Assembly: GCA_013112585.1 (NCBI GenBank)
Contig: JABFGH010000026.1
Span: 1-64,000, forward strand
DNA: 64,000 nt
Direction: 5' to 3'
Source: Ignavibacteriota bacterium
GTDB taxonomy: Bacteria; Bacteroidota; Ignavibacteria; Ignavibacteriales; Melioribacteraceae
Every line of letters begins with the position of its first letter. The stretch's first letter is position 1. The translations under genes were made by a program, and so were the position numbers. Below the pieces are notes generated by a model, which saw only the letters and a program-made list of their open reading frames with translations, did not search any database and had not been told where the DNA came from. This document shows positions 28,200 through 50,730 of this stretch, piece by piece.

Positions 28200-28320
28200 C
28201 AAGCGTCATCACGAGAGAAGCGAAGTGGGCTAATTTAATATTCATATTCGAAAGATTGCTTCAGCAAAAAACGCTTCGCAATGACATTAATACAATTTTG
28301 AGATAGCCTCCTCAAAATAA
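28200..28320. repeat. Degenerate GTCATTGCGA-type dispersed repeat and hairpin
   Basis: GCGTCATCACGAGAGAAGCG (from about 28203) and the inverted CGCTTCGCAATGAC (about 28272-28285) flank AGATTGCTTC, the same words as in the elements at 47127 and 48505, but without their terminal inverted repeats. A hairpin of ATTTTGAG/CTCAAAAT (28295-28318) follows, which may end the T9SS transcript although no T-tract is present. Confidence 0.5.
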
Positions 28321-44656: not shown

Positions 44657-45931
44657 ATGCTTGAAGATCACCCCAAAGGAATTATGGTAATGTTCACAAC
44701 TGAAATGTGGGAGCGTTTTGGTTTTTATATAATGATGGCAATTTTAGTTTTGTACATGGGCAGCGAGTTCGGCTGGAGTGACTCTGTTAAAGGTGACCAC
44801 TACGGAGTATTTCTTGGGCTGGTTTATCTTATTCCATTATTAGGCGGATATTTCGGCGATAAACTTTTCGGGCAAATAAATACAGTAATTGCCGGAGCTT
44901 CATTAATGATGTTCGGCTATGTAGCACTCGCCATTTCCTCCGCAGATCAACTGGTTTCATTTTATATCGGTTTGTTTTTAGTAGCATTCGGAACCGGAAT
45001 ATTTAAGGTAAACATGGCTGTGCTTATTGGTAATTTGTATCGAGATAAAATTCATCTTAAGGATGCCGGATTTAATATCTTTTATATGGGCGTTAATGTT
45101 GGGGCTACAATTGCGCCATTGGCTGCTACTTTACTCGGATATTTCTTTAATGATTATAGAATGTCATTTTGGGCTGCCGCTTTTGGAATGCTCATCTGTT
45201 TAATAACTTTTTATTCCGGAAAAGGAAAGCTGATGACGGCGGATGTAAAACAATCTAAAAATTCTGAAAAAGAAATTGTCTTTGAGGAGATGTCAAAAAA
45301 AGAATCAACTTCAAGGATTTTAACTTTAGGTTTACTTTTTACGATTGTAATATTTTTCTGGATGGCTTTTTATCAGAACGGTTTTGCACTTACACTTTTT
45401 GCAGAAAGATCAACAAAGATTTATGATTTTCTGCGACCTGAAACTTATCAATTTTTTAATCCATTTTTTATTCTTGTTCTAACTCCAATATTACTGACCA
45501 TTTTTAGTAAACTTAACAAAAAAGGAAAAGAACCAAGTACGCCCGTAAAAATCTTTATTGGAATGATTATTATGAGTGCATCAATGTTAATAATGGTTGT
45601 GGCATCTTTACAAGGCGGCAATGATGATGCAAACAATATGTTTCCCGGCTGGTTAATTTCAACGTACCTAATTGTAACTCTATCTGAAATTTTAATTTCT
45701 CCGTTAGGGCAATCTTATGTTTCAAAAGTTGCGCCGCCTAAAATACAGGGGTTAATGATGGGCGGATGGTTTTTAGCCACCTCGATCGGGGCGTTAGGTT
45801 CAGGTTTAATCGGCAAGTTTTACAGTGATTTTTTACATCACGAATATTTTCTGATTCTAACCGGAATACTTCTATTTTCAGTGTTTCTTGCATTCATCTC
45901 TATGAAAAAATTAAAAAGATTTGCGAACTAA
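44657..45931 (+). CDS. POT-family proton-dependent oligopeptide transporter
   Basis: The 424-residue MFS protein has the PTR2/POT signatures: TEMWERFGFY (ExxERFxYY-like proton site, residues about 15-24), GGYFGDKLFG (about 67) and FNIFYMGVNVGATIAPL (about 139). About 12 helices are expected in the family (usually 450-500 residues), so it is on the short side, but both ends look complete. It imports di- and tripeptides with protons. Located between the hydroxyproline dehydratase and the Xaa-Pro peptidase genes; that suggests Pro/Hyp-rich peptides as substrates, which is inference. Confidence 0.9.
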   Translation: MLEDHPKGIMVMFTTEMWERFGFYIMMAILVLYMGSEFGWSDSVKGDHYGVFLGLVYLIPLLGGYFGDKLFGQINTVIAGASLMMFGYVALAISSADQLVSFYIGLFLVAFGTGIFKVNMAVLIGNLYRDKIHLKDAGFNIFYMGVNVGATIAPLAATLLGYFFNDYRMSFWAAAFGMLICLITFYSGKGKLMTADVKQSKNSEKEIVFEEMSKKESTSRILTLGLLFTIVIFFWMAFYQNGFALTLFAERSTKIYDFLRPETYQFFNPFFILVLTPILLTIFSKLNKKGKEPSTPVKIFIGMIIMSASMLIMVVASLQGGNDDANNMFPGWLISTYLIVTLSEILISPLGQSYVSKVAPPKIQGLMMGGWFLATSIGALGSGLIGKFYSDFLHHEYFLILTGILLFSVFLAFISMKKLKRFAN

Positions 45932-45946
45932 AATTTAGGAAATAAA

Positions 45947-47128
45947 ATGCTGGTAAAAGAAAAAGTAGAGCAAGCGAAAAATATTCTAAAAGAATTTGAT
46001 GTTGACTGCTGGATTACATTTGTACGTGAAAGCCAAATAAATGGTGATCCTACATTAGCATTTTTAGTTGAAGCTGATTTAACCTGGCACTCAGCAATAA
46101 TAATTACTAAAAGCGGTAAAACCCATGCTATTGTTGGCAGATATGATGTAGCAACAGTTGAGGAACTTGGTGCTTATGATAAAGTAGTTGGATTTGTTAC
46201 AGGCGCAAAAGAACCGCTCCATGAATTTTTAAATGAATTGAATCCAAAACAAATAGCATTGAATTATTCCGAAGGGAGTGAGATTTGTGACGGCATTACG
46301 CACGGTATGTTTACAACAATGCAGGGATATTTATCCGAGATAAATATGGCGGATAGAATTATCTCGGCAGAAAATATTGTTTCCGCATTGCGTGAACGGA
46401 AATCACCAAGCGAGGTTGAAAATATTAAATCGGCAATAAAACATACTGAGGAAATTTTTGAACTGGTTCATAATTATATTAAGCCGGGAGTAACAGAAAA
46501 AGAGATTGCCTCATTCATAAAAGCCGAGATAAATAAACGAGAATTAGAATATGCATGGGAAGAAACTGTATGCCCTGCAGTTTTTACAGGTCCCGACACA
46601 GCCGGTGCACACTTTGCTCCAACAGATAAAAAGGTTGAACGCGGGCATATTCTAAATATGGATTTCGGTGTTAAGGTAAACGGCTACTGTTCCGATATGC
46701 AGCGCACATTTTATATAATGAAAGAGAATGAAACCTCTGTTCCCGATGATGTACAAAAAGGATTTGACACAATTGTAAACGCAATTGAATTATCCAAACA
46801 GGGTATGAAGCCGGGAGTACAGGCTTTAGAGATTGATGCAATTGCGCGCAAAACTGTTGTTGATGCCGGTTACGAAGAATTCCCGCATGGATTGGGTCAT
46901 CAAGTCGGGAGATTTTCACACGACGGCACCGCTTTGCTCGGTCCCCCCTGGGAAAAATACGCGCAGAAACCTTTTAAGTATTTAGAAGAAGGAATGGTAT
47001 TTACCATTGAGCCGCGATTAACAGTTGAAAACCGGGGCACCGCTACTATTGAAGAAATGGTAATTGTAACAAGCAGCGGAGCAGATTGGCTGACAACTCC
47101 GCAAAAGGACATTCTTATTATTACTTGA
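45947..47128 (+). CDS. M24-family Xaa-Pro peptidase (prolidase-like)
   Basis: The 393-residue metallopeptidase has a creatinase-like N-terminal domain (about 1-150) and a pita-bread catalytic domain. The metal ligands are in LNMDFGVKVNGYCSD (Asp about 240 and 251), GLGHQVGRFSHD (His about 315), TIEPRLTV (Glu about 350) and ATIEEMVIV (Glu about 366). It would release amino acids from Xaa-Pro or Xaa-Hyp peptides in the cytoplasm. The stop codon TGA (47126-47128) overlaps the first two bases of the MITE-like element, so the insertion touches the gene end. Confidence 0.9.
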   Translation: MLVKEKVEQAKNILKEFDVDCWITFVRESQINGDPTLAFLVEADLTWHSAIIITKSGKTHAIVGRYDVATVEELGAYDKVVGFVTGAKEPLHEFLNELNPKQIALNYSEGSEICDGITHGMFTTMQGYLSEINMADRIISAENIVSALRERKSPSEVENIKSAIKHTEEIFELVHNYIKPGVTEKEIASFIKAEINKRELEYAWEETVCPAVFTGPDTAGAHFAPTDKKVERGHILNMDFGVKVNGYCSDMQRTFYIMKENETSVPDDVQKGFDTIVNAIELSKQGMKPGVQALEIDAIARKTVVDAGYEEFPHGLGHQVGRFSHDGTALLGPPWEKYAQKPFKYLEEGMVFTIEPRLTVENRGTATIEEMVIVTSSGADWLTTPQKDILIIT

Positions 47129-47295
47129 AGCCTTTGAATAACCTGCGAAAAAACTTTTTCGGGTCATTGCGAGGAGTCCGTCGGCTGACGGATTCCGAAG
47201 CAATCTGTCGAAAAGTGAGAGATTGGCACATCCGTCTCCGTCAGCTGACGGATGACGGATTAGCAATGACAAAACCTATATTATTCAATGGTTTC
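47127..47295. mobile_element. MITE-like element, copy A (169 bp)
   Basis: Terminal inverted repeats GAAGCCTTTGAATAAC (47127-47142) and ATTATTCAATGGTTTC (47280-47295) match in 13 of 16 positions. The interior carries GGGTCATTGCGA, the palindrome GTCCGTCGGCTGACGGAT (47176-47193), AAGCAATCTG, AAAAGTGAGAGATTG and a 31-base nested palindrome (47230-47260), ending GCAATGAC. It matches copy B (48505-48657) throughout when one is reversed. No open reading frame of substance and no obvious target duplication are seen. Confidence 0.65.
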
Positions 47296-47325
47296 TAATT
47301 AATTATTTTGTAAAGGATTGAATCA

Positions 47326-48249
47326 ATGGGTTTATCAAGAACAGCATTGTTGTGGTGTTCGCAGAATAAATGGATGAAAACAAATGTGCCCAAATACGCC
47401 TTTGTTAAAAAAGCAGTAAAAAAATTTATGCCGGGTGAGACTGTCGAGGATGCTGTAGCAGCTGCTTTAGAGTTTAACAATAAAAACATTGGAACCCTTT
47501 TTACTCAACTTGGTGAGAACATTTCCAATCTTGATGAAGCTGATTCTGTTACTCAACATTATTTAGATGTTCTAAAAATAATTTCTTCTCAAAATCTCAC
47601 CGCGGAGATTTCAATTAAACTTACACAACTCGGGTTCGATTTCTCATTTGATCAAACTTTTAAAAATATTTCTTTAATTGCTGCTAAAGCTAAAGAACTT
47701 AATAATTTTGTATGGATTGATATGGAGCAGAGTTATTATGTTGATGACACTATTAAAGTTTATAAAAAATTAAAATCGGAGTTTGATAATATTGGGCTTT
47801 GTCTTCAATCATATTTAATGCGTACAAAAAGCGATTTGGAAGAAATGATAAATATTTCACCGGCTATTCGTTTAGTTAAAGGCGCTTATATGGAACCGGC
47901 AAATGTCGCATTCAAAAAAAAATTTGATGTTGACGAAAATTATTTTGAGCTTACGAAATATATGCTTACTGCCGGTTTAGAAAATAATGCCCGAATTGCA
48001 ATTGCTACTCATGATTTAAAGATGATCTCCCGAATAAAGGAGTATGCGAAATCAAACAATATTAGTAATGATAGGTTTGAATTCAATATGCTGTATGGAA
48101 TAAAAACCGATGAGCAGAAAAAATTAGTTGAGCAGGGCAAAAGGTTAAGTGTATTAATTAGCTATGGGGAAAACTGGTACCCCTGGTATGTAAGAAGATT
48201 AGCTGAACGCCCGGCAAATATAGGTTTTGTAATTAGAAATATGTTTTAA
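47326..48249 (+). CDS. Proline dehydrogenase (possibly hydroxyproline dehydrogenase)
   Basis: The 307-residue stand-alone FAD enzyme has a beta8-alpha8 barrel: SIKLTQLGFDFS (about 89), FVWIDMEQSYYVDDT (about 127), LCLQSYLMRT (about 156), IRLVKGAYMEP (about 182) and the substrate-binding YVRRLAERPAN (about 287-297). It oxidises proline to pyrroline-5-carboxylate and passes electrons to quinone. Sequence alone does not separate proline from hydroxyproline dehydrogenase, but the downstream genes favour hydroxyproline. A clear AAAGGA ribosome binding site is present. It is bracketed by two inverted copies of a MITE-like element. Confidence 0.9.
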   Translation: MGLSRTALLWCSQNKWMKTNVPKYAFVKKAVKKFMPGETVEDAVAAALEFNNKNIGTLFTQLGENISNLDEADSVTQHYLDVLKIISSQNLTAEISIKLTQLGFDFSFDQTFKNISLIAAKAKELNNFVWIDMEQSYYVDDTIKVYKKLKSEFDNIGLCLQSYLMRTKSDLEEMINISPAIRLVKGAYMEPANVAFKKKFDVDENYFELTKYMLTAGLENNARIAIATHDLKMISRIKEYAKSNNISNDRFEFNMLYGIKTDEQKKLVEQGKRLSVLISYGENWYPWYVRRLAERPANIGFVIRNMF

Positions 48250-48294
48250 AATTTTTAATGTTGTTATAATTCTTAATAATTATCAAATTCTGTT

Positions 48295-48504
48295 CTTTTT
48301 ATATCACTCCTTCGGAGTTTCTTAGTCTGTTTGATTTAATCTATAAAAATTTCACCCCCATCGGGGTTATAATCAATAAGCAAAATCTCTAAGCCAAAAC
48401 ATTTTAACATTAAAAAATATTTTGACAAATCCCGAATGGGTGATATGTTTATAAAAGTTTATACGAAAACAGTACTCAAACCCCTTAGGGGTGATATATT
48501 TAAA
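48295..48504. repeat. Four dispersed copies of a CCCC-N4-GGGGTGATAT repeat
   Basis: Hairpin-forming units appear at about 48302-48322 (TATCACTCCTTCGGAGTTT), 48351-48371 (TTCACCCCCATCGGGGTTAT), 48426-48445 (AAATCCCGAATGGGTGATAT) and 48477-48497 (AAACCCCTTAGGGGTGATAT). The first two read in one direction and the last two in the other. No gene is visible in this 462-base gap (48250-48711) besides these and the MITE-like element. Confidence 0.6.
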
Positions 48505-48657
48505 GAAGCCTTTGAATAACATATGTTTTGTCATTGCGAATCCGTCAGCCGACGGATGTGGCAATCTCTCACTTTTTGGCAGATTGCTTCTCCCGACAAA
48601 CAGCATCGGAATCGCAATGACCCGAACCAGTTTATTCAGAGGTTATTCAAAGGTTTC
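48505..48657. mobile_element. MITE-like element, copy B (153 bp), inverted relative to copy A
   Basis: Terminal inverted repeats GAAGCCTTTGAATAAC (48505-48520) and GTTATTCAAAGGTTTC (48642-48657) match in 15 of 16 positions. Read on the minus strand its interior aligns with copy A: TTCGGGTCATTGCGA, GAAGCAATCTG, AAAAGTGAGAGATTG, CACATCCGTC, GCAATGACAAAAC. It carries the 18-bp palindrome ATCCGTCAGCCGACGGAT at 48540-48557. It lies 54 bases upstream of the aldolase gene. Confidence 0.68.
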
Positions 48658-48711
48658 TTAGAAGAAATAATTAGATGATCCAAACTAAATAAATAAGTCC
48701 ACAGGAAAACT

Positions 48712-49596
48712 ATGATCAAAGGAATTTTTCCGCCAATCCCAACACCATTTGTAGATGGAGAATTATCAACGGAAATGCTTAGAGCAAATATTGATAAATG
48801 GAACTCTACTGATTTAGCAGGCTATGTTGTAATGGGTTCCAATGGTGAAAGTGTATTTTTAACATTCGAAGAAAAGCTACGCTTAACAGAATCTGCCAAA
48901 CAATTTGCTGCACCGGGTAAAATTATAATTGCGGGAACCGGTTCCGACAGCTACAAAGATACCATTGAACTTTCAAACCGTGCCGCAGAAGCCGGAGCTG
49001 ATTATGCATTAGTTCTTACACCTTCGTACTACACAAATCAAATGGACAGCCTTGCAATGTTAAGCTATTTTAAAAGGGTGGCGGATGAAGTAAAAATACC
49101 AATAATAATTTATAACGTACCAAAATTTACAAGTGTAAATATTGAACCGGAAACAGTTGCAAAACTTAGTGGGCACGAAAACATAGTCGGTATAAAAAAT
49201 AGTTCTGAAGATATTGAACATCTTGCAAAAATTAATAAATTAACTCCAGACGACTTTTCGATTCTAGTCGGTACCGCTTCTGTTTTGTATCCCGCATTTA
49301 AAGCCGGCGCAGTTGGCGGTATTGCTGCACTCGCCAATATCGCACCGAATGAATGCATCGAAGTTCTTCAAAAAATTATTGATGGAAATTTAACGGAAGC
49401 TGAATCTCTTCAAGCGAGATTAGTTGAACCAAACAAGGCAGTGACTGCAAAATACGGTGTGCCCGGTTTAAAATCCGCAATGGATATGATAGGCTACTTC
49501 GGCGGTGAGCCGCGTATTCCTTTAACAAAATTACCGCCGGATGAAGTGGTGGAATTAAAAAATATTTTATTACGAAATGGATTATTAAAAAATTAG
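48712..49596 (+). CDS. DapA-superfamily aldolase, probable 4-hydroxy-2-oxoglutarate aldolase
   Basis: The 294-residue Schiff-base enzyme has active-site Tyr134 (IIYNVP) and Lys162 (VGIKNSS). Where DapA has GTTGE it has MGSNGESVFLT (41-51), and the C-terminus has RLVEPNKAVTAKYGVPGLK, MDMIGYFGG and NGLL, all as in animal HOGA1 from memory of that sequence. HOGA splits 4-hydroxy-2-oxoglutarate into pyruvate and glyoxylate, the last step of hydroxyproline breakdown. It is followed after 12 bases by a glyoxylate aminotransferase gene, which supports this over dihydrodipicolinate synthase. AGGAAAAC ribosome binding site. Confidence 0.82.
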   Translation: MIKGIFPPIPTPFVDGELSTEMLRANIDKWNSTDLAGYVVMGSNGESVFLTFEEKLRLTESAKQFAAPGKIIIAGTGSDSYKDTIELSNRAAEAGADYALVLTPSYYTNQMDSLAMLSYFKRVADEVKIPIIIYNVPKFTSVNIEPETVAKLSGHENIVGIKNSSEDIEHLAKINKLTPDDFSILVGTASVLYPAFKAGAVGGIAALANIAPNECIEVLQKIIDGNLTEAESLQARLVEPNKAVTAKYGVPGLKSAMDMIGYFGGEPRIPLTKLPPDEVVELKNILLRNGLLKN

Positions 49597-49608
49597 GGAA
49601 ATTATTTT

Positions 49609-50730
49609 ATGAACTTTCAAACTTACAATCCCCCCGAAAGAGTTTTAATGGGTCCGGGACCATCGAACATTAACCCAAGAGTTTTAAATGCATTATCAAA
49701 ACCAACAATTGGGCATCTCGATCCAAGGTTTATCGATTTGATGGATGAGATAAAACAGTTGTTAAAGTATGCATTCCAAACCGAGAATGATGTAACTTTT
49801 CCCGTGTCGGCGCCCGGCTCAACAGGAATGGAAACTTGTTTGGTTAATCTTATTGAACCCGGCGAAAAAGTTGTTGTATGCGTTAATGGTGTATTCGGCG
49901 GAAGGATGAAAGAAATTATTGAAAGATGCGGGGGAATACCTGTTGTTGTAAATGACGACTGGGGCACATCCGTTGGTCCCTCAAAATTAGAGGAGGCACT
50001 TACTGAAAATCCCGTTGCAAAAATAGCTGCATTCGTTCACGCGGAAACCTCAACCGGGGCTTTATCGGATGTAAAAACATTGGCGGAAATTTCACGCAAG
50101 CATGACTGTTTAACAATTGTTGATACAGTTACTTCGCTTGGCGGTTCTGAGTTGAAAGTTGATGAATGGGAACTTGATGCAGTTTATTCCGGCACACAAA
50201 AATGTTTATCATGCCCGCCGGGATTATCGCCGGTGACATTTAGTGAAAAAGCAATTAATAAGATCAAAAATAGAAAAACAAAAGTGCAAAGCTGGTTTAT
50301 GGATTTGAATCTCGTTCTCGGTTATTGGGGTTCCGGTTCAAAGCGTTCTTATCATCACACGGCGCCAATCAATTCACTTTACGGTCTGCATGAGGCATTG
50401 CTTATTCTGCATGAAGAAGGAATTGAAAATGCATGGCAGAGACATACTGCTAATGGTAAAATTTTCTGTAACGAAATTAAAAAAATCGGGCTTTCTCCTT
50501 TTGTGAAAGAGGAAGAAAGACTGTCACAATTAATTTCAGTGACTGTGCCCAAGCATGCGGATGAAGCATTGGTAAGAACTAATTTATTAGAAAAATATAA
50601 TATTGAAATTGGTGCCGGACTTGGTGCATTGGCAGGCAAAGTTTGGCGAGTTGGTTTGATGGGTCATACATCAAATATTAATAATATTAATTTGTGTGTG
50701 GATGCGTTGAGTAAGGAGTTAGCTGTTTAA
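49609..50730 (+). CDS. Class V aminotransferase, alanine/serine-glyoxylate aminotransferase-like
   Basis: The 373-residue PLP enzyme has LMGPGPSNINPRVLNAL (13-29), Asp172 in IVDTVTSLGG, and the PLP Lys198 in SGTQKCLSCPPG, the AGXT1/SPT pattern. It would convert glyoxylate to glycine using alanine or serine. Pairing with the HOGA-like gene (12-base gap) gives it the obvious substrate, glyoxylate. Serine-pyruvate transaminase activity is the alternative. No peroxisomal or other targeting is relevant in a bacterium. Last gene of the proline/hydroxyproline block. Confidence 0.87.
   Translation: MNFQTYNPPERVLMGPGPSNINPRVLNALSKPTIGHLDPRFIDLMDEIKQLLKYAFQTENDVTFPVSAPGSTGMETCLVNLIEPGEKVVVCVNGVFGGRMKEIIERCGGIPVVVNDDWGTSVGPSKLEEALTENPVAKIAAFVHAETSTGALSDVKTLAEISRKHDCLTIVDTVTSLGGSELKVDEWELDAVYSGTQKCLSCPPGLSPVTFSEKAINKIKNRKTKVQSWFMDLNLVLGYWGSGSKRSYHHTAPINSLYGLHEALLILHEEGIENAWQRHTANGKIFCNEIKKIGLSPFVKEEERLSQLISVTVPKHADEALVRTNLLEKYNIEIGAGLGALAGKVWRVGLMGHTSNINNINLCVDALSKELAV

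What the first reader, a model, noticed from the sequence alone, without database searches (positions are those of the whole stretch)
47127..48657. Two inverted MITE-like elements bracket the proline dehydrogenase gene
Copy A (47127-47295) and copy B (48505-48657) share about 16-bp terminal inverted repeats (GAAGCCTTTGAATAAC) and a similar interior when one is reversed. They flank one gene in opposite orientation, like a miniature composite transposon. No transposase is in the window.
Basis: seen in the sequence. Interest (0 to 1): 0.65.

Follow-up and report, generated by a model that had tools for sequence, protein, structure and literature searches.

The report
IS5-type MITEs carrying palindrome cargo
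Two copies of a small non-coding jumping element landed separately on either side of one gene in a peptide/proline-breakdown gene cluster; they do not form a gene-carrying transposon, but the family is interesting because it moves with IS5-type ends while carrying bacterial palindromes of a kind for which a published survey found no mobiliser.

Summary
Copies A (47127-47295) and B (48505-48657) are opposite-facing members of a family with at least two dozen copies in this Melioribacteraceae-family genome, and in 10 of 79 genomes of the family (exact-end search). They are genuine MITEs: 16-17 bp ends (GAAGSCTTTGMATAACC) and a 5-bp target duplication, consensus TAWTA. In relatives 63 of 91 copies have an exact duplication (6.8 expected after shuffling), and only length 5 gives a signal.

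The "composite transposon" reading fails. A and B each have their own near-perfect duplication (4/5); the outer pair does not (1/5). Each is closer to other copies than to its partner. Relatives keep the gene order peptidase-ProDH-DapA-aminotransferase with short spacers and no element. The two insertions are independent.

The likely mobiliser is an IS5-family (IS5_4) transposase. A 1.25-kb IS in a relative (L176) and a second (L183) have similar ends and 4/5 duplications. None was found in this genome.

The interior is a dimer of GTCATTGC...AGCAAT hairpins, resembling the CGTC-tagged REPs that Di Nocera 2013 reports as lacking a transposase. Three core types ride inside the same ends in relatives. 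This cargo arrangement is the new part. Effects on the operon are inferred only.

The parts
47127..47295 (+). MITE copy A, 169 bp
   Evidence: closest copy G000:C42 (92% over 106 bp)
47122..47126 (.). Left 5-bp target duplication of A (TACTT)
   Evidence: sequence; family-wide test
47296..47300 (.). Right 5-bp target duplication of A (TAATT), 4/5 match to the left copy
   Evidence: sequence
47127..47142 (+). Left terminal inverted repeat of A
47280..47295 (-). Right terminal inverted repeat of A (3 mismatches)
47163..47204 (+). REP-like hairpin 1 of A: GTCATTGC-(TCCGTC..GACGGA)-AGCAAT
47210..47270 (-). REP-like hairpin 2 of A (facing the first), with a TCCGTCAGCTGACGGA inner stem
48505..48657 (-). 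MITE copy B, 153 bp, opposite orientation to A
   Evidence: closest copy G000:C22 (96% over 104 bp)
48500..48504 (.). Target duplication of B, low side (TTAAA)
   Evidence: sequence
48658..48662 (.). Target duplication of B, high side (TTAGA), 4/5 match
   Evidence: sequence
48583..48621 (-). REP-like hairpin 1 of B: GTCATTGC..AGCAAT
48530..48577 (+). REP-like hairpin 2 of B
44657..45931 (+). POT-family (PTR2) transporter, first gene of the conserved cluster
   Evidence: synteny
45947..47128 (+). M24-family (Xaa-Pro type) peptidase; its stop codon overlaps the first two bases of A
47326..48249 (+). Proline dehydrogenase-family gene between the two MITEs, in its conserved operon place
48712..49596 (+). 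DapA-family (DHDPS) lyase/aldolase
49609..50730 (+). Class-V aminotransferase

Best explanation
A and B are two independent insertions of one non-autonomous IS5-type MITE family into two neighbouring spacers of a conserved operon (POT transporter, M24 peptidase, proline dehydrogenase, DapA-family enzyme, class-V aminotransferase). SHOWN: conserved 16-17 bp ends, a 5-bp TAWTA-like target duplication, at least two dozen copies in this genome, the same ends in 10 of 79 family genomes, element-free loci in relatives, and ISs in relatives (IS5_4 DDE transposase) with similar ends and similar 5-bp flanks. INFERRED: such a transposase, now absent or unrecognised in this genome, cut and pasted the elements in trans by their ends. 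SHOWN: the interior is a head-to-head pair of GTCATTGC..AGCAAT hairpins that also occurs outside these ends. INFERRED: it is REP-like cargo that was captured and is replicated passively. INFERRED: the transcribed elements form very stable RNA hairpins in the operon mRNA that could alter stability or relative expression; the operon genes and the ProDH start region look intact.
For: Family and ends. Target duplication in this and related genomes: (76/95 matches against 50.2 shuffled, only for length 5); larger set from relatives: (404/455 against 273.7; 63 exact against 6.8; lengths 3, 4, 6 and 7 show nothing). Records outside the family also show exact 5-bp duplications, e.g. TACGA, TCATA, TATTA. 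IS with similar ends; assignment to IS5_4 (258 bits, cut-off 140). Element-free relatives with short spacers. A and B have different nearest copies. REP-like cores. RNA folding: z -8.0; z -7.2.
Against: Only two IS with similar ends were recovered, the match is not perfect (L176: 15/17 at one end) and their flanking duplications are 4/5. No partner was found in the window's own genome, so the mobiliser there is inferred. A and B duplications are 4/5, not exact. No relative in the same genus is held, so empty sites are shown at the level of gene order, not base by base. A 5-bp duplication is not the textbook value for the classical IS5 subgroups (2-4, 8 or 9 bp; from memory).
Confidence: 0.9

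Rival explanations
1. Composite (TIME-COMP-like) transposon: A and B together mobilised the proline dehydrogenase gene to this place.
For: Inverted pair around one gene; such structures exist for Tn3-derived MITEs (PMC13367494).
Against: The outer flanks TACTT/TTAGA match at 1 of 5 positions, while A and B each have their own 4/5 duplication. The gene is in its conserved order in relatives that have no element. A and B are not nearest copies of each other.
Confidence: 0.03
2. A and B are conserved regulatory RNA or terminator structures of the operon, not mobile elements.
For: Both lie in operon spacers and fold far better than shuffled sequence.
Against: Spacers of relatives lack them; they are family members found at many unrelated loci with target duplications; no Rfam match; the terminator scan found no site inside either element and no excess over shuffles.
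Confidence: 0.03
3. The elements are REP dimers (REPIN/BIME-like) moved by a RAYT (Y1) transposase; the TIRs are incidental.
For: The interior is a REP-like dimer and RAYT-type Y1 genes exist in this genome.
Against: Of the 12 Y1 loci inspected, the three from this genome have neither GTCATT cores nor these TIRs in the checked flanks, and the others only scattered matches. The 5-bp duplication abuts the TIR, not the REP core. MITEs with these ends also exist without a core: 16 of 91.
Confidence: 0.04

Closest known systems
IS5-family derived MITEs: BrickBuilt of Porphyromonas gingivalis and ATR of Neisseria (PMC4596501)
   Same: IS5-type ends with the same GA..CCTTTGCA pattern (ISNme1 GAGACCTTTGCAAAA, BrickBuilt GAGACCTTCGCA; here GAAGSCTTTGMATAACC); no transposase inside; BrickBuilt also traps another repeat type as cargo and lies between genes.
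   Different: BrickBuilt duplications were inconsistent in length; here a uniform 5 bp. The cargo is a REP-like hairpin dimer, not a 23-nt minisatellite. Host group differs (Melioribacteraceae/Ignavibacteriales).
Chunjie MITE of Geobacter uraniireducens (cited in PMC10969869)
   Same: Multi-copy MITE inserted into an operon, reported as not disturbing operon structure.
   Different: Its sequence and ends were not compared here.
CGTC-tagged REPs, including RPE-4/RPE-6 and dRS3 (PMC3733652)
   Same: GTC tag before a stem that begins with AT, head-to-head dimers, intergenic, many copies.
   Different: Inner hairpins are longer than the published 4-5 nt loops, tails are mostly CTG/CTC rather than CCA, and here many copies lie inside TIR-bounded mobile elements.
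TIME-COMPs, composite structures bounded by Tn3-derived MITEs (PMC13367494)
   Same: Two inverted MITEs around a gene; 5-bp duplications in AT-rich targets.
   Different: No duplication outside the pair here, ends of IS5 type rather than Tn3 type, and the gene has not moved.

Membership tests
MITE (non-autonomous DNA transposon) | Short, non-coding, with terminal inverted repeats | tested here: met
   Elements about 60-260 bp with 16-17 bp TIRs and no transposase
MITE (non-autonomous DNA transposon) | Target site duplication of fixed length | tested here: met
   5 bp
MITE (non-autonomous DNA transposon) | Multiple dispersed copies | tested here: met
MITE (non-autonomous DNA transposon) | Autonomous element with matching ends | tested here: met
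   L176 (G059) and L183 (G025); similar rather than identical ends, in relatives only, not in this genome
IS5-derived MITE | Partner transposase belongs to the IS5 family | tested here: met
   NF033581 transpos_IS5_4 above cut-off for both partners; PF01609 plus PF05598
IS5-derived MITE | Transposase acts on these ends | not testable with these tools
   needs a transposition assay
Composite transposon / TIME-COMP | Duplication flanking the outermost ends of the pair | tested here: not met
   TACTT against TTAGA, 1 of 5
Composite transposon / TIME-COMP | Intervening gene found away from its ancestral place | tested here: not met
   Conserved gene order in relatives
CGTC-tagged REP | CGTC/TGTC tag and stem starting with AT | tested here: met
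   GTC-ATTGC..GCAAT in 79 places in the genome, 0 for the reversed control pattern; the base before GTC varies
CGTC-tagged REP | 8-9 bp stem, 4-5 nt loop, CCA-like tail | tested here: not met
   Inner extended hairpins and CTG/CTC tails
CGTC-tagged REP | Predominantly head-to-head dimers | tested here: met
   The complete aligned MITE copies of this genome and many free copies are dimers

The most novel reading that the evidence does not exclude
CGTC-type REP palindromes, reported to lack a dedicated transposase, spread in Ignavibacteriales as captured cargo of MITEs that borrow DDE (IS5-type) transposases: several core types (GTCATTGCG, GTCATTCTG, GTCATTCCG) occur inside the same TIRs, and in this genome the same core also occurs inside a second family with different ends and free of any TIR.
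Probability: 0.4. Interest if true: 0.6.

Novelty: new variant of a known kind. Interest (0 to 1): 0.4.

Why it matters
It settles the bracketed gene as part of an operon that took two independent hits, with 5-bp duplications and candidate IS5_4 partners. More broadly it offers a concrete, testable route by which CGTC-type palindromes, which a 2013 survey (PMC3733652) found without any associated transposase, can be copied around genomes: as passengers of IS5-type MITEs. It also gives a system, with dozens of closely related copies in one relative (66 exact ends in G099), for asking how such inserts affect operon mRNA.

Tried and rejected
Sequence-string searches of the literature for the core motifs gave nothing relevant. 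Rfam: no match. The one PF01609 transposase of this genome (C9, IS1182-like) has different ends. Widely spaced TIR pairs in G099 (1.2-6 kb) looked like cargo elements but resolved mostly into separate small MITEs; a Cytophagales TIR pair around a sulfatase gene (L235) probably does too. A composite transposon, conserved regulatory RNA, and RAYT mobilisation were considered and rejected (see rivals). A 2-bp TA or 4-bp IS5-like duplication was tested and not supported; only 5 bp works.

Full report
CHECK OF THE OBSERVATION. Left ends are identical 16-mers at 47127 and 48505; right ends match with 3 (A) and 1 (B) mismatches. With 3 mismatches allowed, 6 matches occur in the window against 1.13 expected. 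The reversed interiors are 84-93% complementary in three blocks.

GENOME-WIDE FAMILY. Copy A as a query finds 64 matches in its own 4.94-Mb genome. The 16-bp end with up to 2 mismatches is found 43 times against 6 for the reversed control pattern. Aligned copies share the ends, sub-terminal blocks and the centre GAAGCAATCTGCCAAAAAGTGAGAGATTGCC. Two positions vary and hold different palindromes. I count at least two dozen recognisable copies, about half with both ends. A is closest to the copy on C42 (92% over 106 bp) and B to the copy on C22 (96% over 104 bp), while A and B are only 74% identical.

TARGET DUPLICATION. In 19 copies (own genome and relatives), 5-bp flanks match at 76 of 95 positions against 50.2 after shuffling; lengths 2-4 and 6-9 show nothing significant. 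In 91 copies from relatives and other records, flanks match at 404 of 455 positions against 273.7 (sd 7.3), with 63 exact 5-mers against 6.8; lengths 3, 4, 6 and 7 show nothing. The consensus is T-A-W-T-A. Many of the 91 come from one genome (G099), and a few copies of relatives are in both sets, so the two sets are not wholly separate. For the window copies: A has TACTT/TAATT (4/5), B has TTAAA/TTAGA (4/5), and the outer pair TACTT/TTAGA matches at 1 of 5.

EMPTY LOCI. Proteins of this cluster mapped on relatives' loci show POT, M24 peptidase, ProDH, DapA-family and class-V aminotransferase genes in the same order in several relatives (L062, L063; partly L066, L070, L073). The peptidase-to-ProDH gap is about 24-66 bp and the ProDH-to-DapA gap about 19-60 bp there, against 197 and 462 bp here. 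No TIR or GTCATTGCGA core was found in any of the 12 relatives' loci scanned. The upstream stop codon TGA at 47126-47128 now uses the first two bases of copy A. The rest of the second spacer (48250-48500) is other sequence that I did not explain; one relative (L064) also has a long ProDH-DapA gap without the element.

PARTNER. DDE_Tnp_1 loci from nine relatives with these MITEs were scanned for the ends. L176 (G059) is a 1248-bp element with GAATCCTTTGCAAAACC and the inverse of GAGGGCTTTGCAAAACA around a 332-aa open frame, flanked by TATTA/TAATA. L183 (G025) has GAAACCTTT..-type ends, flanked by TGTTA/TATTA. Both proteins are IS5_4 (NF033581, 258 and 252 bits, cut-off 140). A search for L176 homologues found matches in 7 of 79 family genomes, most broken, and none in this genome; the IS5_4 model finds only the IS1182-like gene on C9, below its cut-off. 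So the mobiliser is inferred from relatives.

DISTRIBUTION. TAGAAGSCTTTGMATAACC in genome contigs gives 88 stretches, most in records titled Melioribacteraceae, Ignavibacteriales or Chlorobiota, with a few in Balneolales, Labilibacter, Fodinibius, Cytophagales and an archaeal MAG. Several of the outliers are paired ends with exact 5-bp duplications; a few single matches are expected by chance. Contig lengths link the G handles to these records (e.g. G099 C51 and WGCV01000051.1, both 49291 bases), which suggests that the window's family is Melioribacteraceae.

INTERIOR. GTCATTGC..AGCAAT hairpins occur 79 times in this genome, against 0 for the reversed control. Inner stems exceed shuffled sequence (mean 6.8 against 4.75 pairs; 67 of 77 at least 5 bp against 41) with many different sequences. 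Requiring both ends, 18 hairpins were classed as inside this TIR family, though the tolerance used makes a few assignments (e.g. L014) unreliable; others lie in a second family with AAAGTGGTTTTCG-type ends (L019, L325, L331), in tandem arrays (L312, L344, L347, L354) or free. In relatives 75 of 91 MITEs have a GTCATT core next to a TIR, of CTG, GCG and CCG types, and 16 have none. This fits capture of REP-like dimers by IS5-type ends. Di Nocera et al. 2013 (PMC3733652) describe CGTC-tagged REPs with TGTC variants, AT at the start of the stem, head-to-head dimers and no associated transposase. The cores here share the tag, stem start and dimer arrangement but not the loop length or tail, so I call them CGTC-like, not members.

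KNOWN RELATIVES. ISNme1, ISPg1, BrickBuilt and ATR have closely similar IS5-type ends (PMC4596501), so an IS5-type MITE is a known kind; a MITE inside an operon is also precedented (Chunjie, via PMC10969869). What is new, as far as the searched library shows, is the REP-like cargo in several forms within one set of ends, with a uniform 5-bp duplication.

FUNCTION. Both elements fold far better than shuffled sequence and would be transcribed with the operon. Whether they stabilise, cut or terminate mRNA is untested; no terminator-like site was found in them. The gene cluster itself suggests uptake and breakdown of proline- or hydroxyproline-containing peptides; that is inference from family names.

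Noticed in passing
window 44657-50730: POT transporter, M24 peptidase, ProDH, DapA-family and class-V aminotransferase form a cluster whose order is conserved in relatives; it looks like a (hydroxy)proline-peptide breakdown operon.
   Followed up: partly
window 48290-48510: The rest of the ProDH-DapA spacer holds several short hairpins and a 32-bp direct repeat (48426-48457, 48477-48508; 78%) unrelated to the MITE.
   Followed up: no
window 28255-28285: A free GTCATTGC..AGCAAT hairpin without the MITE ends.
   Followed up: no
L019, L325, L331 (also L104 in G026): A second family with AAAGTGGTTTTCG-type ends carries the same GTCATTGC cores.
   Followed up: partly
L312, L344, L347, L354: Tandem arrays of the GTCATTGC hairpin dimers (e.g. 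139-bp and about 303-bp periods).
   Followed up: no
G099 (L147-L153): A relative with 66 exact ends of this MITE, with a GTCATTCTG core: an apparent recent burst.
   Followed up: partly
L006 1-126, L345 start, L050 end: A shared sequence with TAGTCAACCTATTTCAGGAC / GTCCTGAAAAAGGTTGACT ends lies at contig ends and inside one MITE copy; looks like another insertion sequence.
   Followed up: no
L117 (G000:C9): A 481-aa IS1182-like transposase, the only DDE_Tnp_1 match in this genome.
   Followed up: partly
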